Positions 4,754 through 64,000 of a stretch of DNA of 64,000 nucleotides are shown one piece after another. The DNA is from Dryococelus australis (Eukaryota; Arthropoda; Insecta; Phasmatodea; Phasmatidae), in NCBI GenBank assembly GCA_029891345.1, contig CM056997.1:214311212-214375211 (forward strand), in the 5' to 3' direction. The translations under genes were made by a program, and so were the position numbers. The notes under the pieces are model-generated. The model did no database searches. It was given only the letters and a program-made list of their open reading frames with translations, and was not told where the DNA came from. The first letter of the stretch is position 1. Each line of letters opens with the position of its first letter.

Positions 4754-5129
4754 CTTTATAGTATCATAATCCTCACTGGTTCAATGAAAAGTGGTAGTAT
4801 CTTTATAGTATCATAATCCTCACTGGTCCAATGAAAAGTGGTAGTAACTTTATAGTATCATAATCCTCACTGGTTCAATGAAAAGTGGTAGTATCTTTAT
4901 AGTATCATAATCCTCACTGGTTCAATGAAAAGTGGTAGTATCTTTATAGTATCATAATCCTCACTGGTCCAATGAAAAGTGGTAGTATCTTTATAGTATC
5001 ATAATCCTCACTGGTTCAATGAAAAGTGGTAGTATCTTTATAGTATCATAATCCTCACTGGTTCAATGAAAAGTGGTAGTATCTTTATAGTATCATAATC
5101 CTCACTGGTCCAATGAAAAGTGGTAGTAT
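4754..5129. repeat. 47-bp minisatellite, 8 copies
   Basis: Unit starts occur at 4754, 4801, 4848, 4895, 4942, 4989, 5036 and 5083, exactly 47 bases apart, beginning CTTTATAGTATCATAATCCT. Copies differ mainly at GGTTCAATG versus GGTCCAATG, so the array is young. Confidence 0.97.
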
Positions 5130-6369
5130 CTTCATAGATGCATGACAGTCAATAAGGAAAGAAAACTGGCTAACACGTGTACAGTATGTTGAATCCTAGC
5201 AAAATAAGGTATTAATATGTTAATGCAAGTATAAACATCTTGTGGCAAATGAGACATTTACAGCTAAGCACGCCATACATTGAGTGTTTTTTTTAAAGTT
5301 CGATCCAAAGAATGTGAAGAAACCGCAAATAGTCTATAATGTTAGCATTGGAAACCGGAACAGTAGCATTGGGCATCGACTATTGCCGTGTGCATTACCG
5401 ACTGCATTATGTACATAGTTGTGTACACTGGGACTGAATACGTTAGAACTCTCTCCTGTGCTATGTGTGTTGCCTAATGTCAGGCAACACGTTCTCTTTT
5501 CAGAGTTACGCATGGATTTCTCGAAAAACCCTTCATTCACCTACGAGTGTTCCTATATAACGCGACCTTTTTTGTTCATTTAGACGCGCTGATTAATTTG
5601 GTTGCCTTAGAAAATTGCGTAAATCTTAGGTTTACAAAATTTAATTCAATAATAAAATACCAATCCTCAATTGTGACGATGAAGGTGGATGATATTGCCA
5701 ACCATTCCTTCAGATGCGTGAGATCTGTGTTCTACATAGCACCATTCCCCGATTTGTTTTTCAATCACAAGCGGTGTATGACATTGCGAAGGAAAAACAT
5801 TTTTAAATTCAACTTATTAATTTCTCTAGAAAAAGAGTGAAATGTTATTCTCGTTTTCTTTTTTCGTAAATAATAGCCTGCCGGCATTTGTCGGCGTTAA
5901 AAAAAAAACTTGCAGTGAGAAAGAGAGAGAGAGAGAAGGCATTCACGGATAGCTGACTACTTCCCCTCGAAAACTGTCACTGCTCCTGCCTGCAAATATT
6001 TTAACGGACAGAATGACCGGAATGCGGCGAATATATTTGGTAACAACGACGGAGGGAAAGTAATTTCATGAGAATTTAAAGTTTTTGGTAATCATTTGTG
6101 AGTACTAAAACTATTTATCTTGCTCTATTTTTTTTTAATGCGCGTACAAGTGTGAGAATTAGGTGATCTGAAGAAATATTTTCTTTTCTACTTACCTCAC
6201 ATGTCGACTTGTCCGACGCATTAATACAAGGATCAGACCTATGACAATGTTAGCGCCGATCTCAACACGGAACCCACAACAAATAATCCGCGGGGCACAG
6301 TGGAGGGTGACTCTTTACAATTGGTAGAAAAATACAGAACGTCCATGCAATTAGATCGTAAGCAGGGAT

Positions 6370-14935: not shown

Positions 14936-16061
14936 TACGATTGCTGACAGCACCAAGATGGCTGACTGGGTATAGGCATGGAGGTATTAGTCTATCGAGT
15001 GGAAGCCGAAACACGAAAGTGAAGCCGAAAATGAAATACATGGACAGGGCTAGTAGTGGCAAAAAGGTGCATGTTTTACATTGCTTGCTATGAAAATTTT
15101 GCCACTCATAATATGGCGGCTGATGTAAACAATCGATCTGCGCATGCGCAGTTGAAAGAAGCAGACAAGGTATCGGCTTCACTTGATAAACGTGGAGAAG
15201 ATAGGCTGTTGCCACTCCATCATTTATTACCTCCATGGGTATGGGCAAGACAGGTGGAGGCCTGCCGACTAATTTGTTAGGAGAGGATGGCGACGGGGGA
15301 ACCTCAGCAAATTAAATTTTTTTATATACGTTTTTATTAATATTAATAATATTTTTTGTTTGGTATTTTAAAAATTCATTTTGGAACTTCATTTAAATAT
15401 TTTTATTTTATTTTTTGGAATATTTTGAGAATTTTTTTTTATTATTGGTGTCAAAGGTCATGAGTCCTACTCTCCTAGCTTGGAGTCACTGATCCCGGTC
15501 TCCTGCTTGGGGAAAGACGGAAATTTTTTTGGGGAAAAAGACTTTTTTTGGGATAAAGGGATATTTTTAGGAAATTTTAGTAGATTTTAAGTGAATAAAG
15601 GAAAAATATTTGAGGGGAAAAGGGGAAAAAAATGGAAAAAATATATTTCGGATGGGTATGTCTCCACATGGCTGCCGGGCGTCTGCGCGCTCCGGTCCCC
15701 TGTACCCTTGTTATGAACAAACTTTATCCTACAACTTCCCCACCCCTTTCTCACCCTCCATTTGTTGCTACGGCGTAGTAGGTTAAATCGTATACGAAAA
15801 TACTAACTAAAGCGATATTCTATTGCAGTTTTGTGTGCTTTGTGGCTACCCTTTAAAAAATCCATGTATGGTTTTATTTACGGCAAACAAAACCGTTTAT
15901 TTGAGACTGTGTGGTTTACAGCGACACGATATAGCTTTAGTTCTGAGATGAAGTCACAGAAACATAGGTTTCCTGTTAGTAAATGTTTTCTTTATACATT
16001 TTGTTTTATGGAAATATTATCTTTCTTTATAGCAAATAAATGAGCATTTTTGAACAGTTTC
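14936..16061. other. No gene; low-complexity and decayed repeat
   Basis: Purine-rich GGGGAAAAAG-type words at 15500-15650 and a GTCAAAGGTCATGAG word near 15450 suggest continuation of the nearby AGGTCA-type repeat. No coding signal. Confidence 0.5.
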
Positions 16062-16439
16062 TGTTTACAGCAAAGATATATTAGTTCGTGCCAACGATAT
16101 GAGTTGAAAGGTTTTTGTTTACAGCAAAGAAATATTAGTTCGTGGCAACGATATGAGTTGAAAGGTTTTTGTTTACAGCAAAGAAATATTAGTTCGTGGC
16201 AACGATATGAGTTGAAAGGTTTTTGTTTACAGCAAAGAAATATTAGTTCGTGCCAACGATATGAGTTGAAAGGTTTTTGTTTACAGCAAAGAAATATTAG
16301 TTCGTGGCAACGATATGAGTTGAAAGGTTTTTGTTTACAGCAAAGAAATATTAGTTCGTGCCAACGATATGAGTTGAAAGGTTTTTGTTTACAGCAAAGA
16401 AATATTAGTTCGTGCCAACGATATGAGTTGAAAGGTTTT
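16062..16439. repeat. 54-bp minisatellite, 7 copies, open on both strands
   Basis: Seven units contain GTTTACAGCAAAGAAATATT and CAACGATATGAGTTGAAAGG. The period is divisible by 3, which keeps a 139-codon frame open on plus and a 152-codon frame on minus. Units alternate GTGGC and GTGCC. I find no reason to call either frame a gene. Confidence 0.95.
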
Positions 16440-16696
16440 TTGCCGCACATTATAGTTTTCAGTACGTAACTGTTTTACTGACGTAATCATTCACAAACCA
16501 GTATATTCTATAGTTGTGAAACTGTAGCAGATCGAATGTATAGTCCTCCTGCAGACGTTTAATGTCATTCTGAAGTGCAGTACAGTTACTCTCCAAGTCA
16601 CTGCAATTATTTCCCACAGGTGGCATTGTATTCTGGACCATGTCACTACGAACCTACGTTTCAAAAGTAATCTCAGTGCAATAAGACGAAGTGGTC

Positions 16697-53230: not shown

Positions 53231-55640
53231 TATTCGGAATTATTACAGAGATGCACGGATGCTTGCAATAACCTGGCCGTCCAAGTCGCTGGACCCGAGT
53301 CCTATAAAATAGCTGTATACGAAAATGGATAGAAGAGTTTTTATACTAAGGACATTCACAAACACGGGATACATTGCTGGACCGTATCAGGAAGATGCAG
53401 TAATGATCAAGGCCAAGCACCGTGAATTACGGCGAGCTACACTCGTCATACACAGACAAGCTAATTGCGTGTATTGCTGCTGAGGGCGGTATCTGAATAC
53501 GTATTTTCATCTCTGTACACACCACAATACACAGATGAGCTTCTTTTCTTTGTGACAGCGAAACACCAACCTAAGTTGTTTCTCCGTATTCGTTCAGAAT
53601 CGGACCCATGTTTATGTCCCCTGCCCCCCCCCCCACAGATATCTAATAACACATTCAATAATTCGAACATTCGTCACCAATCACTTGCGTGTCGAAGGAA
53701 CAGCCACATTATTTCGCTTCTGTGTGCCTGCTGTTCTGAGCTCAAAGGGCGGTTTACGATCAACTTGGCGTATGTAAGAGACGTCTGCATAGGACGTTTA
53801 CAAAAATGCCTGGTTCATAATGAATGTACACGTATTACTCCAAACACACTCAACTAGAAAGTAACTTTTTTTGTGAAATAGTTAGAATTTTATTTAATTT
53901 TTGTTTCCTTCTTCTGCCAGTACTTACTGCGCTGGATTTGTCGATAACATAACATAAAACATGATAAGGCAATACCAAATAAAATCAAGTATAAATATTA
54001 CATACGATTTAGATGTAATTTTTAGGCGAGTAAAGAAAATAATAATGTAAGTTTCCTTTCATAATTCCGATATTCTGTTAACCGCAACAAATTACTTCCT
54101 CTCGCCTGCTTCAGTTATATTGGCTGAATATCTTACGGACACGAAACGAAATAAAATATCGCCATTTTCTACACGTATACACTCTCATTTTGATACGTAG
54201 AGGTTTTTCGTTGTAAACCGACCGTTACTCGAAGTGGGGAACTTATGTCTGTTCCTCCCTCCTTGGCAGACCACTAGCGCTGCACAAACCACATTTCAGA
54301 ACCACTGTCACAGAACTGACCTTCGCCATTAGGAAACCTGTTGCCGAACAGCATCGTCTCAAGATTTACTCTACAAGTACTGCAGCGAGAGGGTCTTTAC
54401 CACCCAGAAAATGTGTCGTTATTCCGACTAACTTAACAGGCAGGTGGGAAGGTCATCGTTATCTCTGAAACGTTCAGCTTTACAGGAACGGTACATCATG
54501 CTGTTGGAAATTTAATGAACCTCGCTTGTAAGAATTCACGCATTGGGCTATATGTGTTTGCAATCTTAGTATGAGTTCATGCTTCTCAAGAAACATTCAT
54601 GAGAACGCCCTGGTTCCTCAGTTTTCTGTGGTGAATTTTAACTGATCACTTATTTGAAAGTTTTCAAAATGATTTTATTCAACTGGTTTTCGTATATTTA
54701 GTAGTTCGCTATCCAAGAAGAATGCCATGAACTAAATCTCACCTCTGAAATTATTTATTATTTTTACTATAACTATTAAGATACAGTTTCACCTAGAAAT
54801 CCAATGAGATTCACCAAGCACGGTCGACAGGGGATATGACACGTACTTATTTTATTTATTTTTCTCATTCCTTCTTTAAAGAAATTAGGTGCGCACAGAA
54901 ACTTGATTTCCACGTTCCACAGAATTACTTCACCTATCTTGAGGCACCCGCGAATAATAAATCAATGAAAAGAAGTGCGTAATTCCATCCATATGTAGCA
55001 CATGGATGCATCGACATTTTGCGTTAAACACTGTTATGTACAGTGCTGGTTACTTATTCGTTTTACGTGCAACATGTGCACGCTCGTTGCCATGGTGACG
55101 AACGAGTTGAATAGGATAAAAGAGTGTAGGGTAATTTAAACTGGTAATCATAGTGTTGGTTTTTATTTACCTTGGCAATAATATTGATTTTTGAAATAAT
55201 CAATTTTAGAAAATTATAAATTACTTAGTTAGGAAAACTTAAAAGGAATCGGTTATTTTCAGATTGAGGTTACTATTAATTGTTTATAAGGTTGTGTCAT
55301 TTAAATATTGATAACCTGACATTTTGAAGTTCGTCACAATTGCCAAATTATAATATTAATGTTTTATTCTCATTGTATATAAAATTACTTTGTAAAATTA
55401 TTTTATTATAATCATTCAATCTTCTCAAAATATTACTTCCACCATCGGTTCGAGCCAACGGAAATAGGTAACATAACTAAAATTCAATATAATTTAATTA
55501 ATTAAAAAGTATGCTATTAGCTATAATCTATAGTTACTAAGACATGCTGTCTATGTATCCTCCCTCCCTTCACTGTCAGCCCAGAAAATGTCTTATTTCC
55601 AACTACTTCAGGAACTCTCCAACTGCTAGACACCCCTCAA
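53231..55640. other. No convincing gene
   Basis: An ORF at 53465-53857 crosses a C-run and shows no family signature. The remainder is AT-rich with no bounded repeat seen. Confidence 0.5.
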
Positions 55641-55664
55641 GACACCAAGTTGGACTCTTCCAAA

Positions 55665-55883
55665 ATGTTTATTTGTTTGCGTTACTACGCTTTACCCATG
55701 AATTGTGAACTCTCCCGAAAATCTGCCCAGTCCGGTTCTGTAAGAGGACTAGTTATTCCCCCACCGACCTCTTCCCCTGATTCGCCATACCTGGAGCTGA
55801 TAACAACCTTCAAACTTTTGTGCGCGGGGATGCTTGAAAAATTCTCGCATTTAGTCTCTGAAGTGTTTGAACGTTTGCAGCAA
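55665..55883 (+). CDS. Candidate host exon ending at a strong splice donor
   Basis: From the ATG at 55665 the frame reads about 73 residues, including KSAQSGSVRGLVIPPPTSSP and LEKFSHLVSEVFERLQQ, an amphipathic helix-like end. At 55884 the sequence CAGCAA is followed by GTGAGTATAT, a near-ideal 5' splice site. GC content rises locally compared with the flanks. No partner exon was identified within the window and no family is recognised. It could be a first coding exon of an unknown gene or chance. Confidence 0.3.
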
Positions 55884-56004
55884 GTGAGTATATTTTAACA
55901 ACTCCCACTATTTAATTATTACACATAATTGTGAGGAAATGTACAGATACTACTTAATCACAATCTAGGTGAATGAATAATCCATATAAATTTGAAAAAA
56001 AAAA

Positions 56005-56005
<1 letters not shown>

Positions 56006-56066
<61 letters not shown>
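56006..56066. repeat. (TA)n microsatellite
   Basis: Pure AT dinucleotide run of about 60 bases. Confidence 0.97.
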
Positions 56067-56070
<4 letters not shown>

Positions 56071-56199
56071 GATTTTTAGTCCCTGCAACTTCGTGGAAGA
56101 AAAATGATGAAATCAATTCTAAGTTACTTAACACAAACACAGGTTATCGATCCGAAATAATTTTAACAAAAACTCAAGTGAAAACCATCAGTGTTTGTT

Positions 56200-57270
56200 A
56201 ATAGCCATTAACTGTATTTTACATTTATATTTAAAACTCGTATACTATAATTAAATTAATTATTTCGTCTTGTTTTTTGTTAAGATGTAAAATTGTTGAC
56301 TCATTGCGAATCTCCATAGCCTTTACTGTTTTAAATATGAATGATTTCGCTATTTTTAGGTGATATTCATGCAAGCTGATTTCACAACGAGACAGTATTT
56401 TTTGCTGTTATGGAAAGCGTTCATACAAAGTAATTCGCTAATTGTTGCGAACAAACACTCACTCATTAAACCGATTGAATGAAAAAGTGTGTATTCAGTT
56501 CACATACAAATATTTCTGCTCTCTGTAAACATATCAATTAACCAGGTAATTTTTGTTTTGTTATGTTGATATGCATCTTCAAGGTATATATGTAAAAAAA
56601 GGTCACACCCACGAATAAATAAATGTTCTTCACACAAACCAAGCTACAACCCTTGTAGATAAAGTAATAAGATATATTTTTGCAAAAACATTGATTCACT
56701 CATTTCTCCAAGCTATATGATTATGAACTTCCAGATCTACAGTTTGGAGATCAATGACTAACATATTCACTTTGAAATATCTAATATATCCCATTTTTCC
56801 AACAAACACAATATTTAATTACATGTACAAAAATCACATTCTTCTTTAAAATATTTATTTATATACAGAAAAAATAAACTCAATCTTCTTTTTTGTGAAT
56901 GAGGTGGTTACATTTGGTTGATGTTGCAGGAAGATTAACTCGTTGCTCTCAAATCTATGAGAAGTTGTTATTCACAGCGGATTCTAGATGAGGCATTGGT
57001 TGTTAGAATTTCAGATTAGATATTTTAAGACACTATCTGTCAGTTTATTGGTTATCTTTTGATACAGCTGGCAGTTTAATTGACTTGTAGATGCTACTAT
57101 GTCATTTAAGTATCCCATTGGCTGTATTGCTAATAGCAGGGCTGAATTTATAATGGCATTCCCCTGAACAAACTAGAAAAGTCTGCATCACTTTTCAGCC
57201 TATTGTTAACTATCTCCGCGTCAGTTAGCCTGCCGGCGAATGCGTTAGCCAGGATTTTGTATCTGATATT
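56200..57270. other. AT-rich flank of the viral cluster, no gene seen
   Basis: No open frame of note. If the integrated element ends here, its terminal repeat is not recognisable without the right-hand end for comparison. Confidence 0.5.
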
Positions 57271-57273
57271 GGA

Positions 57274-58341
57274 TTATGAACTTTTTACTGAATCTGGAGG
57301 CTTGGGAATCAAGTAATTTTTCATCCCTGGATTAACATATCGAATTTGTGGAGGTAATTCAGTGGGTGGGGCTGGAAATGTTAACTGTGGAGCTGGAAAT
57401 GATAACTGCGGAGCTAATTGTGGTGTTGGCTTAGGAGGTGGTGCAGATTGTGGAGCTAACTGAGGAGTAAACTGCGGAGCAGATTGTGGAGATAACTGAT
57501 GAGCAAATTGTGGAGCAGATTGTGGAGCTAACTGAGGAGCAAACTGCGGAGCATATTGTGGAGCTAACTGAGGAGCAGACTGTGGAGCAGATTGTGGAGC
57601 TAACTGAGGAGCAATCTGTGGAGCATATTGTGGAGCTAACTGAGGAGCAAACTGTGGAGCATATTGTGGAGCTAACTGAGGAGCAAACTGTGGAGCATAT
57701 TGTGGAGCTAACTGAGGAGCAAACTGTGGAGCATATTGTGGAGCTAACTGAGGAGCAGACTGTGGAGCAGATTGTGGAGCTAACTGAGGAGCAGACTGTG
57801 GAGCAGATTGTGGAGCTAACTGAGGAGCAAACTGCGGAGCATATTGTGGAGCTAACTGAGGAGCAAACTGTGGAGCAGATTGTGGAGCTAACTGAGGAGC
57901 AAACTGTGGAGCATATTGTGGAGCTAACTGAGGAGCAAACTGTGGAGCATATTGTGGAGCTAACTGAGGAGCAAACTGCGGAGTAGATTGTGGAGCTAAC
58001 TGAGGAGTAAACTGCGGAGCATATTGTGGAGCTAACTGAGGAGCAAACTGTGGAGCAGATTGTGGAGCTAACTGAGGAGCAAACTGTGGAGCATATTGTG
58101 GAGCTAACTGAGGAGCAAACTGTGGAGCATATTGTGGAGCTAACTGAGGAGCAGACTGTGGAGTAGATTGTGGAGCTAACTGAGGAGCAAACTGCGGAGC
58201 ATATTGTGGAGCTAACTGAGGAGCAGACTGTGGAGTAGATTGTGGAGCTAACTGAGGAACAAACTGTGGAGCATATTGTGGAGCTAACTGAGGAGCAGAT
58301 TGTGGAGATTGAGATCCAGTGTTGCAAGTTTTACAATGCAT
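57274..58341 (-). CDS. APQ-repeat protein, 355 residues, with zinc-finger-like remnant upstream
   Basis: This is the longest intact open frame in the window. After MHCKTCNTGSQSPQ it consists of about 24 near-identical 12-residue units of the form APQ-L/APQ-Y/APQ-F with Tyr/Ser and Phe/Ser variants. It then has a unique proline-rich end (FPAPQLTFPAPPTELPP) and ends in PKPPDSVKSS. The same frame extends upstream of the ATG to two stops near 58384 and reads FCQKQFSRSYALNMHCKTC, which resembles a decayed C2H2 finger with F, L and H at the usual spacing. An N-terminal finger plus low-complexity tail would suit a DNA-binding viral protein, and the direction matches the capsid cassette to its right; both points are inference. 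The 36-bp array is also open in two other frames, but only this one has unique sequence at both ends. Confidence 0.5.
   Translation of the reverse strand: MHCKTCNTGSQSPQSAPQLAPQYAPQFVPQLAPQSTPQSAPQLAPQYAPQFAPQLAPQSTPQSAPQLAPQYAPQFAPQLAPQYAPQFAPQLAPQSAPQFAPQLAPQYAPQFTPQLAPQSTPQFAPQLAPQYAPQFAPQLAPQYAPQFAPQLAPQSAPQFAPQLAPQYAPQFAPQLAPQSAPQSAPQLAPQSAPQSAPQLAPQYAPQFAPQLAPQYAPQFAPQLAPQYAPQFAPQLAPQYAPQIAPQLAPQSAPQSAPQLAPQYAPQFAPQLAPQSAPQFAHQLSPQSAPQFTPQLAPQSAPPPKPTPQLAPQLSFPAPQLTFPAPPTELPPQIRYVNPGMKNYLIPKPPDSVKSS
57445..58308. repeat. 36-bp minisatellite built of three 12-bp subunits, about 24 copies
   Basis: Each unit is three variants of a 12-mer of the form GGAGCNNNNTGN, arranged as a higher-order 36-bp repeat. 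Since 36 is divisible by 3, a frame open in one unit stays open, which explains long ORFs on both strands. Differences between units fall mostly at a few positions (A/G giving Tyr/Ser or Phe/Ser, and T/C synonymous in Pro). Confidence 0.95.
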
Positions 58342-59039
58342 ATTTAAAGCATAACTCCGAGAAAATTGTTTCTGGCAGAATTATCACTGAAACTGATTTT
58401 TTAAAGATTTCATTCGACAGCTACTTCTTTCATGTCTTCGTAAGTTTCGCATAACAGTAAATTCTTTACTACTGAAGTGACACAGCAAATATATAATTTC
58501 TTTTCTACTATTCAAAGATGATAATAAAACTGCAAAGCATACGCATTTTATAGGTATTTATAGGCAAATCCATGAAGCAATTCTTTTACTTTATTAGTTT
58601 TAAACACAATATGTCTGTGTTGTAGAAGGTGTTAAATGTACATTTTTTCAACATAAGACATTTGAATACTAGAATTTAGTTTTTAAATACTTTTATATAT
58701 TAAATCACTTGCAAATTACTAAATGTTAATTTAATCATTAACATGCACACAAACCTTTATGTGCTAACAAATTTACATTTTAATGTTAAATACACGCAAA
58801 GTTTACATAACATTTGATTGTCAGAATATGGTAATATTACAAATCATGCATTCATTAAGTCAGTAAAACAGAAAAATATTTTCAAACTATTTATTTTGAT
58901 ACATTTGCTTACAGAATACATTTTCACATCACTGTGTTTTCAAAAACATTTTTACGTCATATCTTCTCCTTGGCAATATTTATAGTATTTTCATCTGTTT
59001 GATTGTTAAAATTTTTCACATATTTGGGTGCGTTAACTA

Positions 59040-59234
59040 TTATACATTCTGGTAAATAGGAAAAGTTTCATAAACGTGCGAATACACTTCTTCGATGATC
59101 GCTGGTAGACTTGTATTCGGACACATATGGTATACAGGACATTTTTTCAGTTCTTGACAAGATATTAAATCATTATATTTTTTACCCGCTAAGGGACATT
59201 GAATATCTTTGAAATGAAACAGTCCATCGCATAT
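59040..59234 (-). other. Cysteine-rich open segment of unknown identity
   Basis: The frame starts right after a stop (or an AG acceptor, TTTTGTATAG) and reads about 65 residues to two consecutive stops. Six cysteines occur in a short span (ICDGLFHFKDIQCP, LISCQELKKCPVYHMCPN). It loosely resembles small disulfide or peritrophin-like domains but lacks their full spacing. There is no ATG at the start. It may be a single exon or a decayed viral gene piece. Confidence 0.25.
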
Positions 59235-59618
59235 CTATACAAAATGACATATTATTCCGTTAAACAAGCAAGTTTAATCACACACGAGTTTCCAGAGTCA
59301 TAAATACCAGTTGGGGAAAGAAAGACATGTTTACAGTAGAAACGCCACAAATATACTAAATATATTTATTTCTGAAACAAATTCGAAATGGTTTACTCCA
59401 ACGTGCTAATAACTTGCTGATATTCAATTTACATTTGGATTTCTGTATGCAAGAACAAGTGATTTTGTTTTCTTGTTGATCCATCTTAACTAAGTAGTAG
59501 ATTACATACAACCAAATACTTATTATATTAAATTTTACTCATTAGTTCTCTCACCCCAAATAATGCCAATTGACTCGAATAATATTCACAGGTGATTCGG
59601 GAGAAGAATCATCATAGT

Positions 59619-59879
59619 CTATTTCACCCCAGGCAGACCACAAGTAAGCAAAAATTTTGAGTTTTCCTCTGCAGAGAAGAACATCGAATAAGAACCATAT
59701 GTTTTACACCATTGTTTGAACAAGGGGCAATTGTATACTTTTTGAATATCTATTACTTTCCCGTTATACACACATTCGAAAAAATGTTTTTGCTCAACTC
59801 CACCTACATATATTTCAAAATAATTATGTAGGTAATTCATGCTAATATCTTCAATATTCTCATACTCTATACATCCACA
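59619..59879 (-). CDS. Unassigned short ORF downstream of the capsid remnant
   Basis: The frame is open from about 59879 (ECGCIEYENIEDISMNYL) with the first ATG at 59840 and ends at 59619. It encodes about 73 residues with several cysteines and aromatics (YNCPLFKQWCKTYGSYS). I do not recognise the family. Its position and direction, about 270 bases after the capsid C-terminus, suggest a fragment of another gene of the same element. Because its neighbours are broken, this is probably also a remnant. No ribosomal, signal or membrane features are evident. Confidence 0.35.
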   Translation of the reverse strand, partial: CGCIEYENIEDISMNYLHNYFEIYVGGVEQKHFFECVYNGKVIDIQKVYNCPLFKQWCKTYGSYSMFFSAEENSKFLLTCGLPGVK

Positions 59880-60148
59880 TTCCCATTATAAACTATGATG
59901 ATGGTTAGTAACCAATCTATTAGTTTTCTTGTATTTGGGAGATTGATATTTCAATTTGATTTGAAGCTAAATACAGTTGTATGTTCTTCCATATCAGTAA
60001 TAGCTAATAGCTAATTCTTTAATGTTAAATTTATCTGCAGACTGAAATCCTTGCACATTGCAAAACATCTCATCGCAGCCGTGGTTCGTTGTCTCCTGAC
60101 TCAATTCATTATTTTCACCAACTTATCTCTTACACTGTAACTCGCTAA

Positions 60149-61318
60149 TCAATTGCGAATAATAAGAGTACAAGCTTGTGTATTTGCTGGAATTGGTGTA
60201 ATTGCAAAAATTTCAATTTGTGAATCAATTATGCCATTGGTAATTCTGTCGTCCTGTTTGCGTTCATCAAACACAAATAATGCTCCTCTACTTTTAAATG
60301 TTTCGGATACTAGGATCGGTGAACTGTTTTTGTTATAATATGTTTCCTGAAACTTTGTATACATATGATAAAAAATAAGGAATTCGCCATTAGCAAACTT
60401 CATATTAAAATCCACATAGAGGTAAGCTTGGCTGTTTAGATACAGTTTAATATTTTTCATATCACAATTATCGAATACTAGTCTATCAGCTTATAAATTG
60501 TTTTGTCGATTTGTTTGAAAACAAATGACAACATATCTCGGTTTTTCCAAAGATAAACTCGATTTCACACTACACACAATATTTTGAGCAAATTGTAGAG
60601 TTGGGTATGCCTCTAAATTCCACGATCTGAATGCAATGTCTAGATACTTCCCTTTTTCGATAAATTTTTAAAAAAATTTACATATTCACGAGTGTAAATT
60701 TCAATATGTGGCATCATCCATTCCACACTGCTTAATTCAAATGTTACACCTTCCTCGTTATTAGCCGTATCATATATGACATTCAAATGCATATTGCTGA
60801 ATAGAATAACTAATTCTTCTTTAGCATTTAATATGACATGTTTGTAGTCTTTAGCAAATCCCAAAACCATACTTAAAAACTTTGTACTTTCCACCTGGGT
60901 TTATTTGTACTAAATAATCACTAGCATTGTTCCACCTATCCATAAGTCCTGTATAAAGATCGTTTACAGTTCCCAAAATATAGTTCTTTATCTTGGAAGT
61001 AATTCCAAAATCTTGTATTTGATCATTTCTAACACCAGTTATCAGATATGGAATTCTGTCGATTAAATGAAGTATTCCATTTCTTACTGTTTTAGTAGTT
61101 GCTTGATTACTTGCATCGGCTGTCTTTTTAATTGTTCCTCTAAACCTTAAACTTGATTTCGATGGTAATGTGTCAATATCATGATTTTGTTTTGAAATCC
61201 TTATTTATGATGGAAACATGTATGGATATGCTCGGAATGGTTCATACACATGTATTTCCGTATTGGTGATGACATTTTCATAGCTGATCGGTTCTTCAAC
61301 ATTAAGTATGTCTTCCAT
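60149..61318 (-). pseudogene. Major capsid protein, double-jelly-roll type, broken
   Basis: This would form the icosahedral shell. The first open piece starts at the ATG at 61316-61318 and meets a stop at 61205-61207. The same frame then continues to 60851 and contains RNGILHLIDRIPYL and DFGITSKIKNYI, hallmarks of the capsid family widespread in insect Polinton/adintovirus-like elements. A frameshift near 60880 moves the reading into the segment 60894-60640 (LGFAKDYKHVILNAKEEL, VEWMMPHIEIYT). A further piece with AFRSWNLEAYP and LEKPRYVVICFQT ends at a stop near 60490. The last piece (60460-60149) has MKNIKLYLNSQAYLY, TKFQETYYNKNSSP and a C-terminal PANTQACTLIIRN. All parts are present in order over about 1.17 kb, near full length, with two in-frame stops and at least one frameshift. 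It is nonfunctional. Confidence 0.88.
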
Positions 61319-61319
61319 T

Positions 61320-61500
61320 TCTATTAAGAGTATATCCTAATTCTTTCACATACAATTCGTTGCCTTGTGTTAACTTCACAGGTAACTTATTTCAAGTGAG
61401 AATTTTATGTTGACGTTTACGTCTTTTACTTCCTTCGAAATACCTTCTTTAGTGCCACATTTCTTAAAAATACTGCCTACTTTATTCCGAATTTACTCTT
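61320..61500 (-). pseudogene. Short remnant between partner protein and capsid gene
   Basis: A short open segment on the minus strand reads VGSIFKKCGTKEGISKE and ends in stops near 61389. It resembles the small lysine-rich proteins that these viral cassettes often carry between larger structural genes, but the match is weak. A further piece, VKLTQGNELYVKELGY, in another frame leads up to the capsid start. It may be a small core protein, or decayed N-terminal sequence of the capsid gene. Confidence 0.3.
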
Positions 61501-61599
61501 ATACACAATACCAATTATGATTGTAATGTACAATGGAATATAACAGCTTAAATAGCTTTTTTTTTTTAAATTAAACTAACTGCAATTCTTTTTTTTTTA

Positions 61600-62160
61600 A
61601 TTAATACATTTGCTGTCTTGATCGACAATTGTAACAACTATTTCGCCACACGATTCACTATTACTGGAAGATATATCAGTGTATTAGGTTTTTAAATTAT
61701 TTTATATCCTTGTGCCACAGCCCATACGAATCCATGTAATATATATGTCAGTTTTCCATTCAAATATGAACTGTCTACAATATTAACAACTATGCGACAT
61801 TAATTTACCGATAATATATTACCTGTTTTGAAGATTCATGGAATTAATTAGCTGGATATACTCTCAGTTGAGCACCCAATATATTTGGAATTGAATTGCC
61901 TTCCGAGAAATCGATATTGACGTTACTATACTTAGCACTAGTTAACGTATTTGGATTTCCACGTAATCGAAAATGTATGTACATCTTCAGGTGATGCCAC
62001 TTTAATGAATGTTTCAAGGTCTTCCAACTCATGAGATTCTACCGTTATCACTATATTGTAGGTTTTCCCCAATATTAGCTGCAAATAATTTGTTATGCAT
62101 ATCAATGTTTGGTATGCTGTTGTAAGTAATGAATTCCATTAGACTTATTTGCTATTCTCC
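61600..62160 (-). pseudogene. Capsid-cassette partner protein of Polinton/adintovirus-like element, broken
   Basis: I recognise this as the conserved protein that usually lies next to the capsid protein in these insect elements; its role (minor capsid or vertex component) is inferred, not established. Pieces in order on the minus strand are MEFITYNSIPNIDMHNK (from about 62140), IVITVESHELEDLETFIK in a second frame, then the open segment 62032-61844 with the hallmark VNIDFSEGNSIPNILGAQLR. After a stop, GYKII and LIYLPVIVNRVA appear in one frame and EIVVTIVDQDSK in another, ending near 61600. At least three frame changes and several stops show long decay. It follows the protease in the same direction. 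Confidence 0.7.
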
Positions 62161-62261
62161 ATCTAACTCCAATACAGGGAAATATACCACAGGCAATTGC
62201 TATGAATTTCCACTTAATATCAACATAATTGACATATTGCTAATATTTTTTACTCTTATAA

Positions 62262-62760
62262 TTACTTATATACCGTATTTCTAACCAAAAAATGTAAACA
62301 TGAATATCCGCAATTGATTTTATTTAGTAATTAGACCATTTTGTAATTATATCTTAATTACATGTTTTTTAAATAATTAAGTATTTCAATTGGAGGACTA
62401 AATTGCCGAAAACTGTCGTAATACAATGATTGATTTACGTTTTTAATTAATGCAAACCAATGTATTCCTTCGTTTTGTTTTGAATCTAAATTAACAAACA
62501 TACATTCACGAAGATTTGGTTTCTTTGGTAAATCATTTCTCATATACACACTTCGGAAATAGGGAATATCCAGGTTCTTAACAAATACACTAAGAGCTTT
62601 GTTTGCTAATGCTAGTTTTGGAAGACTATTTAGGACTTTCTGGATGTTTTCCACATTTTGAGTTTTTTCGACCTTGTCCAACAAGGTTTCAAATACGTTC
62701 CTTTACATTTTGATTTAACTGCTTTACTAATTGTCGAAACCCCTCCGAGGATTGATCCAA
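62262..62760 (-). pseudogene. Adenain-like (C5) cysteine protease, two in-frame stops
   Basis: Proteases of this family cleave capsid precursors during virion maturation. The longest open part (62684-62358) reads IPYFRSVYMRNDLPKKP, then NEGIHWFALIK (His75) and LYYDSFRQFSPP (Asp90), the spacing expected of the catalytic His and acidic residue. Stops follow at 62358-62360 and 62331-62333. In the same frame beyond them is INCGYSCLHFL, whose first Cys (codon 62310-62312, residue 125) matches the catalytic cysteine, and the frame ends at 62262. Upstream, 62685-62760 holds GSSEGFRQLVKQLNQNVKE in another frame, probably an N-terminal extension or the end of the neighbouring gene. All three catalytic positions are recognisable, so the gene was once complete, but the stops separate the nucleophile from the rest. 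It sits between the PLA2-like gene and the capsid cassette, as is usual for such elements. Confidence 0.88.
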
Positions 62761-62762
62761 GA

Positions 62763-63118
62763 TCATGGAATGAGTCCTATTTTCTTTGTTTTTCTTTTAG
62801 TTTCACATTTTAGGCCCATGCCTCTATTTACATTCGAGCGCATAACTGTGTCAACAGCCCAAGCTCCAATCTTTTCACCTGTAGATGTAGATGGATTCTC
62901 CCTTATATTTGCTGCTTTATTGGCTAGAATTGTATCTGGTATATGTCTTTCTTTCAAATTGTTATTTCGATCGTAAACTATATTGTGTTATTTACATGCA
63001 TTATCCAAAGAGTTTATTCCTTGATCATTTGGGGTCAAACTTCTGCAAGTTTAGTACCTGGTCCGCAATAATTGTATTTCGGTAAATGCAATTCAAATGG
63101 TAATTTATTAATCAATGT
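62763..63118 (-). pseudogene. Parvovirus VP1-like phospholipase A2 domain protein, broken
   Basis: PLA2 domains of this type occur in parvovirus VP1 and in some adintovirus-like elements, where they help the particle cross membranes. Reading leftward on the minus strand, the calcium-loop motif YCGPGT lies at 63053-63070, preceded by PFELHLPKYN. A frameshift follows, then GINSLDNACK and, after an in-frame stop at 62988-62990, HNIVYDRNNNLKERH. The family normally has a Glu-His-Asp stretch here: the Glu codon is now a stop, the His remains (62985-62987) and the Asp is Asn. The tail ends in WAVDTVMRSNVNRGMGLK, which fits the usual lysine-rich end. The gene lies immediately upstream of the protease in the same direction. 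One stop, one frameshift and loss of the catalytic Asp make it nonfunctional. The domain call rests on the two motifs in correct order and spacing. Confidence 0.82.
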
Positions 63119-63119
63119 A

Positions 63120-63430
63120 TTCAATACACCACATCCTTTTTTGATATGTTTAGTATATGTCATTGTTTTCAACTAAAGGCGAACCTCTACATAGACCAAA
63201 ATTTACAATTTTATGTTAGTATGTTACAATTGTTTTACATTACTACATTACAGCAATACATTATAATATGTTACATTATGTTATGTTATGTCATTACATT
63301 ACAATATGTTACATTATTACGTTATGATACATTGCAATAAATTAAATAAGTACGTTACAATATGGTGCAATATGATACACTAGTATGTTGCGATACATTA
63401 CAATATGTTAAGTTAGTATGTTATGATACC
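63120..63430. repeat. Degenerate TTACATTA/TATGTTA tract between divergent viral genes
   Basis: Irregular repetition of short ATGTTACA-like words lies between the plus-strand ATPase and the minus-strand PLA2/protease cassette. Position suggests the former divergent promoter region. No TATA box can be singled out because the tract is almost all A/T. Confidence 0.6.
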
Positions 63431-63453
63431 TTATACTGTCTATTTGTGAAGGA

Positions 63454-64000
63454 ATGAATGTTATAAAACAATATAATTGTAAATTGGTAATTGTAAATAT
63501 GAAAGAAAAAGTAATTGAACAGAAACATGATATTCTTTTACCATCAAATATATGTTGTATAATAAGCTGTCCTTCTTCATGTGGAAAAACTTGTGTTATT
63601 ATGTCGCTGTTGGAGCATCCGAATGGACTTAAATTTGAAAACCTATATGTGTTTTCTAAAACAATACAACAAGAGAAATATAAACGATTTGCGAGCATTT
63701 TGTCGTAATTTAAAGGAATGCGATATTTCCTTTTACAAATAAGGATGATATAGTGCCTCCGAATGAATTATTTATTTATTTTTGACGATGTTTGGTGTGA
63801 ATGGTGAGGTGAAATACCTTAATATTTCAGTTTTGTCCGACATTCAAAAGTTGATTGTTTTTATCTATTGCATTGTTGCGCACATATATCAAAACATAAT
63901 TTGCATGATAATGTAAATATGGAAGTAGCGTTTAAAATGTATGATATGAATCTGCAACATATTTACAATGATCAAGTTTTAGGCGATATAACATTTACAA
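63454..64000 (+). pseudogene. Virion DNA-packaging ATPase (FtsK/HerA/A32-like), broken, runs off window
   Basis: A viral ATPase of this family pumps the genome into preformed capsids. The first open segment (63454-63708, 84 codons) carries a Walker A motif CPSSCGKT at residues 39-46; the lysine codon is 63586-63588. The first glycine normally expected in the loop is a cysteine. A Walker B motif IFDDV starts at 63778, in the same frame but after stops at 63706-63708 and near 63751. Part of the segment between them (DIVPPNEL) is in another frame, so there are frameshifts as well. From 63838 the original frame reads DCFYLLHCCAH and DMNLQHIYND, which I recognise as the C-terminal half of packaging ATPases of insect Polinton/adintovirus-type elements. 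It is divergently oriented to the protease/capsid genes on its left. The gene is inactive as it stands and its end lies beyond the window. Family call is from motif order; certainty is high for ATPase, moderate for the exact virus group. Confidence 0.85.

What the first reader, a model, noticed from the sequence alone, without database searches (positions are those of the whole stretch)
57274..64000. Fossil Polinton/adintovirus-like DNA virus cluster at the right edge
Packaging ATPase, PLA2-like domain, adenain-like protease, capsid partner protein and double-jelly-roll-type capsid protein occur within 4 kb in a sensible order, on divergent strands. The motifs (Walker A/B, YCGPGT, His/Asp/Cys of the protease, capsid hallmarks) are read directly; the group assignment is from family knowledge. 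Every gene with a known family is broken, so this is an endogenous viral element. I saw no polymerase or integrase, which may lie beyond the window.
Basis: partly seen in the sequence, partly recalled or inferred. Interest (0 to 1): 0.9.

Follow-up and report, generated by a model that had tools for sequence, protein, structure and literature searches.

The report
Decayed copy of polymerase-less virus-like transposon
The right edge of this stick-insect window holds one old, broken copy of a virus-like mobile element (a Polinton) from a large family in the same genome, in which the copies examined share a cut-off DNA polymerase gene while capsid and integrase genes were kept.

Summary
Extending the contig adds ORF2 and integrase (to ~66.5 kb) and an inverted terminal repeat (~69.0-70.95 kb). 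Leftwards the copy reaches 55,562 and breaks off. The host is Dryococelus australis.

It is not a one-off virus fossil. Its capsid region has at least 39 sister copies in this genome (capped list), 81-86% identical, on 12 contigs. In ten aligned copies distances are nearly equal, 20 of 21 frameshift events are private, and variable sites do not differ between codon positions: one burst, then neutral decay.

The polymerase is present as a stump. The 355-aa ORF at 57,274-58,341 belongs to the N-terminal part of the PolB gene (zinc finger, PQ repeats, start of the N-domain). In 6 of 6 sister left arms read, that gene stops at the same place, is followed by the same non-polymerase sequence, and no polymerase core was found. 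So the family most likely spread as a polymerase-truncated, capsid-bearing element. I infer that polymerase came from other Polintons; the genome has 54 PolB matches (47 places), some beside capsid genes. No helper with matching ends was found. New variant of a known kind.

The parts
55562..64000 (.). In-window part of the decayed Polinton copy; continues on the same contig to about window coordinate 70,954
   Evidence: DNA homology to sister copies begins at 55,559-55,562 in 4 of 6 left arms; right inverted terminal repeat ~69,035-70,954
55562..57160 (.). Left arm without recognised genes, shared with sister copies; this copy lacks stretches of 578-751 bp (at 57,160, vs 6 of 6 sisters) and 654-845 bp (at ~56,178, vs 5 of 6) that sisters have
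   Evidence: 56200-57150 has 39 other matches at 83-87% (capped list)
57166..58557 (-). Remnant of the PolB N-terminal gene: zinc finger, Pro/Gln-rich linker, first part of the N-domain
   Evidence: 57258-57166 and 57294-57166 match the PolB N-domain (3.3e-11, 2.1e-8); finger scored by Pfam in sister copies (best 1.8e-4), in the window read by eye; N-domain lies upstream of PF03175 in L040 and L041
57438..58307 (.). 36-bp minisatellite (24.2 copies) inside the PolB N-terminal gene
   Evidence: shorter arrays in sister copies
59043..59234 (-). Cys-rich piece, weak match beside another copy's capsid gene; unnamed
   Evidence: tblastn to L003, E 8.6e-4; no Pfam hit
59622..59885 (-). Piece in the place of insect Maverick ORF8; named by position only
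   Evidence: No protein match in L002-L009 or L042-L049; lies in DNA shared with sisters
60104..61324 (-). Double-jelly-roll major capsid protein gene, in pieces
   Evidence: PF21738; open homologue from L008 aligns over 61324-60104 in two frames, E 4e-96
61847..62239 (-). ORF6, possible minor capsid protein (not shown), in pieces
   Evidence: Pieces match 6 of 8 other-lineage copies; L008 ORF6 at 62235-62068, E 2.7e-13
62277..62702 (-). Adenain-like cysteine protease gene with a premature stop
   Evidence: matched in 7 of 8 other-lineage copies
62766..63172 (-). PLA2-domain (CAP) protein gene, frameshifted
   Evidence: PF08398 8.8e-5; L057 homologue 2.4e-24 in two frames
63256..63433 (.). AT-rich imperfect 33-bp repeats between the two divergent gene arms
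63427..64000 (+). Packaging ATPase gene, broken; continues to ~64,058, followed beyond the window by ORF2 (~64.9-65.6 kb) and integrase (~65.7-66.5 kb)

Best explanation
This is an old, decayed, left-truncated copy of a Polinton/Maverick-derived element family of Dryococelus australis. SHOWN: the layout is [PolB N-terminal stump, ORF8-place, capsid, ORF6, protease, PLA2 protein] leftwards and [ATPase, ORF2, integrase] rightwards, with long inverted terminal repeats (the left one read in sister copies). SHOWN for the 6 sister left arms read: the PolB gene ends at a common stop after its N-domain and no polymerase core follows. INFERRED: the parent element was already polymerase-truncated when it multiplied; terminal repeats and probably its own integrase served insertion; the DNA polymerase was supplied in trans by polymerase-bearing Polintons of the genome. 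After one burst the copies decayed as neutral DNA (shown for the capsid region of ten copies).
For: Genes and order. Interspersed family: 39 other matches at 81-86% over 60100-61250 and 39 at 83-87% over 56200-57150, both capped lists. Burst and decay: ten copies, mean pairwise identity 0.867 (0.855-0.886); 21 frameshift events, 20 private; variable sites by codon position 153/342, 157/341, 140/340, p=0.42. Truncated PolB: N-domain 48.5% identical to the region upstream of PF03175 in L040, 9e-36; common stop in L023, L025, L027 and L022, L024, L026; PolB core pieces 0 hits in 6 left arms, 6 outer stretches, 6 right stretches, L010, L011 and the window. Terminal repeats: window right end matches 5 of 6 sister left arms in the outward direction. 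Polymerase elsewhere: 54 PF03175 matches, with capsid or protease genes within 8 kb on the N-terminal side in 2 of 6 read (L052, L054).
Against: The capsid-to-integrase middle of the sister copies was read only in part; three of six right stretches (L030-L032) do not align usefully to the window's right side, and 3 of 9 sisters break off at 59,363-59,460, so whole sister elements were not seen. The PolB scan by Pfam took 99 of 166 eligible pieces. Shared stops inside the capsid gene were not counted, and one 2-nt insertion there is shared by two copies. Two of the capsid pieces show a slight third-position excess. Exact ends and target-site duplications were not resolved.
Confidence: 0.75

Rival explanations
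1. A virus fossil proper: each copy is a separate germline integration of an infectious adintovirus-like virus with a complete genome, later eroded.
For: Capsid, protease, ATPase and PLA2 genes are all there; frameshifts are almost all private, as expected if capsid genes were intact at insertion.
Against: Nearly equal distances among ten copies without significant codon-position signal fit one rapid burst rather than a virus lineage diverging under selection; the shared PolB stop and shared sequence behind it in 6 of 6 mean the sister parents were not complete.
Confidence: 0.1
2. A polymerase-less Polinton whose capsid genes were already useless: an ordinary non-autonomous DNA transposon carried by terminal repeats, with the capsid genes as passengers.
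For: Amplified interspersed family with terminal repeats; no evidence of selection on the capsid gene among copies.
Against: 20 of 21 capsid frameshift events are private, so a parent with an already frameshifted capsid region is not supported; stops and the other capsid-module genes were not tested this way.
Confidence: 0.15
3. Host locus with spliced genes or chance motifs.
For: The minisatellite ORF alone would be uninformative, being open in more than one frame.
Against: Colinear Pfam hits to 1e-26, the same gene order beside most other-lineage capsid copies (7 of 8 with protease, 6 of 8 with ORF6), interspersed copies.
Confidence: 0.01

Closest known systems
Sf Maverick 1 and 2 of Spodoptera frugiperda (PMC5803895; passages and section 11 part 1 seen)
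   Same: Insect Mavericks with ATP, ORF2, INT, PLA2-bearing CAP, adenain-like PRO, then ORF6, ORF7, ORF8 in one series; here CAP, PRO, ORF6, capsid, ORF8-place follow in the same order, and ATP, ORF2, INT likewise.
   Different: There the eight small ORFs are tandem on one strand and a full POLB (1162 aa in the table) is present; here ATP-ORF2-INT runs divergently from CAP onward, and PolB is cut after its N-domain. That paper found no PY (jelly-roll) homologue; by position its ORF7 would be the capsid gene (my inference, not tested).
Adintoviruses (family now Eupolintoviridae: PMC12451622 passages; definition in PMC11071296 section 16)
   Same: Capsid, adenain, packaging ATPase, rve-type integrase, PolB-related sequence.
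   Different: [quoted passage not shown] no polymerase core was found here. Starrett et al. 2021 was not held.
Non-autonomous DNA transposons in general (PMC6431247 passages)
   Same: Multiply using enzymes supplied in trans.
   Different: This family kept the virion genes and integrase and lost the polymerase; the loss reported for Polintons in PMC4028283 (passages) is the opposite one, nine elements without MCP, PRO and ATPase genes.

Membership tests
Polinton/Maverick (Eupolintoviridae) | Double-jelly-roll major capsid protein | tested here: met
   PF21738, four colinear pieces
[quoted passage not shown]
   Only an N-terminal fragment in the window; core absent from window, L010, L011 and the sister stretches read. 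Hence filed as a polymerase-less derivative, not as a complete Polinton
Polinton/Maverick (Eupolintoviridae) | Retrovirus-like (rve) integrase | tested here: met
   Fragments at ~65,719-65,859 and 66,149-66,376 match L056 pieces (1.0e-6, 1.8e-13); L056:2980-3231 matches PF00665 at 5.1e-5, 23.9 bits, below the cut-off 32.6. Beyond the window
Polinton/Maverick (Eupolintoviridae) | Adenain-like protease | tested here: met
   Homologue 1.6e-25; direct matches to adenain weak: 0.081, 0.22, 0.05
Polinton/Maverick (Eupolintoviridae) | Packaging ATPase | tested here: inconclusive
   Homologue in the same position 5.9e-15; that homologue matches Pox_A32 at 0.0019, below the cut-off
Polinton/Maverick (Eupolintoviridae) | Penton (minor capsid protein) | tested here: inconclusive
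   ORF6 is conserved but has no family or PDB match of note
Polinton/Maverick (Eupolintoviridae) | Terminal inverted repeats | tested here: met
   Window's right end matches 5 of 6 sister left arms; its own left repeat is lost
Polinton/Maverick (Eupolintoviridae) | 6-bp target-site duplication | not tested
   Ends not resolved to the base; the feature is taken from PMC8097293
Adintovirus | PolB with N-terminal OTU-like domain | tested here: not met
   Common stop before that region in 6 of 6 sister left arms; that the OTU begins there is my reading, no OTU search was run
Adintovirus | Integrase with C-terminal chromodomain | tested here: inconclusive
   The C-terminal piece L010:2831-3241 has no Pfam hit
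Adintovirus | Hexon recognisable by BLASTp to adintovirus hexons | not testable with these tools
   No animal virus protein library; viral contigs gave no relative

The most novel reading that the evidence does not exclude
A satellite-like Polinton: a lineage that gave up its polymerase but kept capsid, protease, ATPase and integrase genes plus a free-standing PolB N-terminal protein (zinc finger, PQ linker, N-domain). If that N-domain is the terminal-protein domain described for Polinton polymerases (PMC11071308 passages), the element would have carried its own replication primer and borrowed only the polymerase from a helper, and multiplied to some hundreds of copies that way.
Probability: 0.3. 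Interest if true: 0.7.

Novelty: new variant of a known kind. Interest (0 to 1): 0.5.

Why it matters
Polintons are named for encoding their own polymerase and integrase. A family that spread after losing the polymerase core while the virion module stayed would mean that polymerase and capsid can be uncoupled in the direction opposite to the loss already described (elements without capsid, protease and ATPase, PMC4028283 passages), and it would make helper dependence among animal Polintons testable within one genome. It also puts a name on part of the repeats of the D. australis assembly, of which 1.56 Gb were unclassified; the words Maverick and Polinton do not occur in the main text of the genome paper (PMC10268593 passages). 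For scale, vertebrate genomes average 22 Maverick copies, the axolotl has 287 (PMC8097293 passages).

Tried and rejected
Led nowhere: viral-contig scans with the capsid piece (51 pattern matches, no relative) and the protease piece (24, none); protein database searches (13 candidates, none; 1 candidate, none); PHROGs, 10 pieces, nothing below E 0.02; PDB with the window capsid piece and the L008 capsid (0 hits); motif TAYTGYGGNCCNGGNACNAARYT in viral contigs (0). The related pattern gave one metagenomic contig, L001, with a PLA2 protein (1.1e-14) beside a 439-aa ORF without Pfam hit and a Walker-A-bearing ORF on the other strand: a distant parallel only. Terminal repeats inside this copy were sought and not found, later explained by the lost left end. 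Rejected: the PQ ORF as a host mucin or repeat artefact; the divergent strands as a rearrangement of this copy (same in L056, L057); the idea that PolB merely lies beyond the window. Copy number: 3 places shared between the lists give a Chapman estimate of about 400, crude and not relied on.
Full report
WHERE AND WHAT. The window is C5:214,311,212-214,375,211 of a genome of 3,415,067,245 bases in 646 contigs. Contig C4 is 262,277,254 bases long, exactly the published scaffold N50 of the Dryococelus australis assembly (PMC10268593, passages; that assembly is given as 3,421,391,311 bases in 1,879 scaffolds, so the held copy is slightly smaller). The species is inferred from this match.

THE OBSERVATION. 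The capsid gene is certain: four minus-strand pieces match PF21738 in the right order, best E 1e-26, and an open capsid frame from elsewhere in the genome (L008) aligns over 61324-60104 in two frames, E 4e-96. PLA2 scores just under the Pfam cut-off, but same-genome homologues above the cut-off align across 63166-62781 in two frames. The protease rests on a weak direct adenain match (E 0.081, the only PDB hit) plus a strong match to the gene in the same position of other copies. The ATPase rests on position and homologues. ORF6 is real but not shown to be a penton. Of 153 open pieces of 75 aa or more in the window, 148 were scanned apart in two batches (five left out: two minisatellite frames and three capsid pieces, the latter scanned): five Pfam families in the first batch, among them a Pao retrotransposon peptidase at 1.6e-31, none in the second.

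EXTENDING THE CONTIG. To the right (L010) the ATPase continues to ~64,058, then ORF2 pieces (64,943-65,101; 65,220-65,603) and integrase pieces (65,719-65,859; 66,149-66,376) match those of L056 or L057; L056:2980-3231 matches PF00665 at 5.1e-5, below the curated cut-off. At ~69,035-70,954 lies a repeat that matches, in the outward direction, the left ends of 5 of 6 sister copies at about 69-89% over patches: long inverted terminal repeats. The exact end could not be fixed. To the left, homology to sisters runs to 55,562 and stops sharply in 4 of 6 comparisons, while sisters go on to their left repeat; the window copy lost that end. It also lacks two stretches of roughly 0.6-0.85 kb that sisters have.

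A FAMILY, NOT A SINGLE FOSSIL. Searching the genome with 1,151 bases of the capsid region gave itself plus 39 others at 81-86% identity (capped at 40 of 3,932 first-look candidates) on 12 contigs. The left arm, 56,200-57,150, gave itself plus 39 at 83-87% (capped); three places occur in both lists at the expected 3.7-4.0 kb spacing and strand. Other lineages are also present: PF21738 gave 126 scored matches, all over the cut-off, out of 18,148 first-look candidates, none of them among the 39 sisters, and PF08398 gave 150 scored matches; neither family rings in the 14 control genomes. These are lower bounds. Window proteins are 31-51% identical to eight of the best-scoring capsid copies; protease is found beside 7 of the 8 and ORF6 beside 6.

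ONE BURST, THEN DECAY. In ten aligned copies (window plus nine) pairwise identity is 0.855-0.886, mean 0.867. Of 21 frameshift events 20 are private; one 2-nt insertion is in two copies. Pairwise differences by codon position are 0.127, 0.127, 0.144, and variable sites do not differ between positions (p=0.42); two of the four capsid stretches show a slight third-position excess. Stops were not counted by sharing.

THE POLYMERASE STUMP. The minisatellite ORF sits in a gene that in sister copies has a C2H2 finger (Pfam best 1.8e-4), a Pro/Gln-rich linker and a domain of up to 133 aa. That domain is 48.5% identical (9e-36) to the protein region upstream of the PF03175 polymerase domain in L040 and 54% in L041. 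The window keeps 31-43 residues of it, ending at the 57,160 gap. In all six sister left arms read, a stop stands at the same place at the end of the domain, and the same non-polymerase sequence follows. Polymerase core pieces from L040 and L041 had no hit in those six arms, in six further outer stretches (five left, one right), in six right stretches, in L010 and L011, or in the window. Three of the right stretches (L030-L032) show no useful homology to the window's right side, so they say little. No finger was found by a motif scan within 2.5 kb of the near end of six stretches upstream of PolB, so the finger-and-linker part may be peculiar to this lineage or decayed elsewhere.

WHERE THE POLYMERASES ARE. 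PF03175 gave 54 matches (91 scored of 6,290 candidates), 47 places by my count. None lies within 25 kb of the 126 capsid matches, the 39 sisters or the 39 left-arm matches; since all lists are capped this is suggestive only. Against a clean separation, 2 of 6 PolB loci read on the N-terminal side carry capsid or protease sequence within 8 kb (L052, L054); these are what a helper could look like. The terminal repeat was not found in the PolB loci held, whose outer ends were not fetched.

LAYOUT. In L056 and L057, joined by position to other-lineage capsid copies L008 and L004, the PLA2 gene and the ATPase also run divergently. So the divergent layout is ordinary here, unlike the tandem series of Sf Mavericks (PMC5803895, section 11 part 1), with which the gene order within each arm agrees.

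MECHANISM. Shown: amplified family, terminal repeats, common truncation of PolB in the arms read, neutral decay. Inferred: the truncation preceded the burst, replication used polymerase in trans, insertion used the element's own or a relative's integrase. Not shown: that virions were ever made, or that the N-domain is a terminal protein. Two literature searches for such elements (listings) showed me none, which is not proof of absence in print.

Noticed in passing
L056:586-975 (+): In another capsid-bearing lineage a zinc finger plus Pro-rich ORF sits between the PLA2 gene and the ATPase, resembling the finger-and-linker part of the PolB stump (Pfam only 0.027).
   Followed up: partly
window 1-29364: Pao/BEL retrotransposon peptidase (PF05380, 1.6e-31) and an integrase zinc-binding piece (PF17921, 4.6e-5) among pieces of the left part of the window; one weak TTC7_N match (6.3e-4) that could be a host exon.
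   Followed up: no
window 4754-5137 and 16050-16440: Two clean minisatellites, 47 bp x 8.2 and 54 bp x 7.2, both 97% matching.
   Followed up: no
L001:5739-6179 (-): Metagenomic viral contig with a YNYCGPGT-bearing PLA2 protein (PF08398, 1.1e-14) beside a 439-aa ORF and a Walker-A ORF on the other strand.
   Followed up: partly
Sf Maverick ORF7 (PMC5803895): By gene order, the unidentified 404-aa ORF7 of Sf Mavericks should be the double-jelly-roll capsid protein that its authors did not find; inferred from position, not tested.
   Followed up: no
L012 (window copy) and probably L015: The only frameshift event in the capsid alignment that is shared, a 2-nt insertion in two copies; L015 inferred from the counts.
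   Followed up: no
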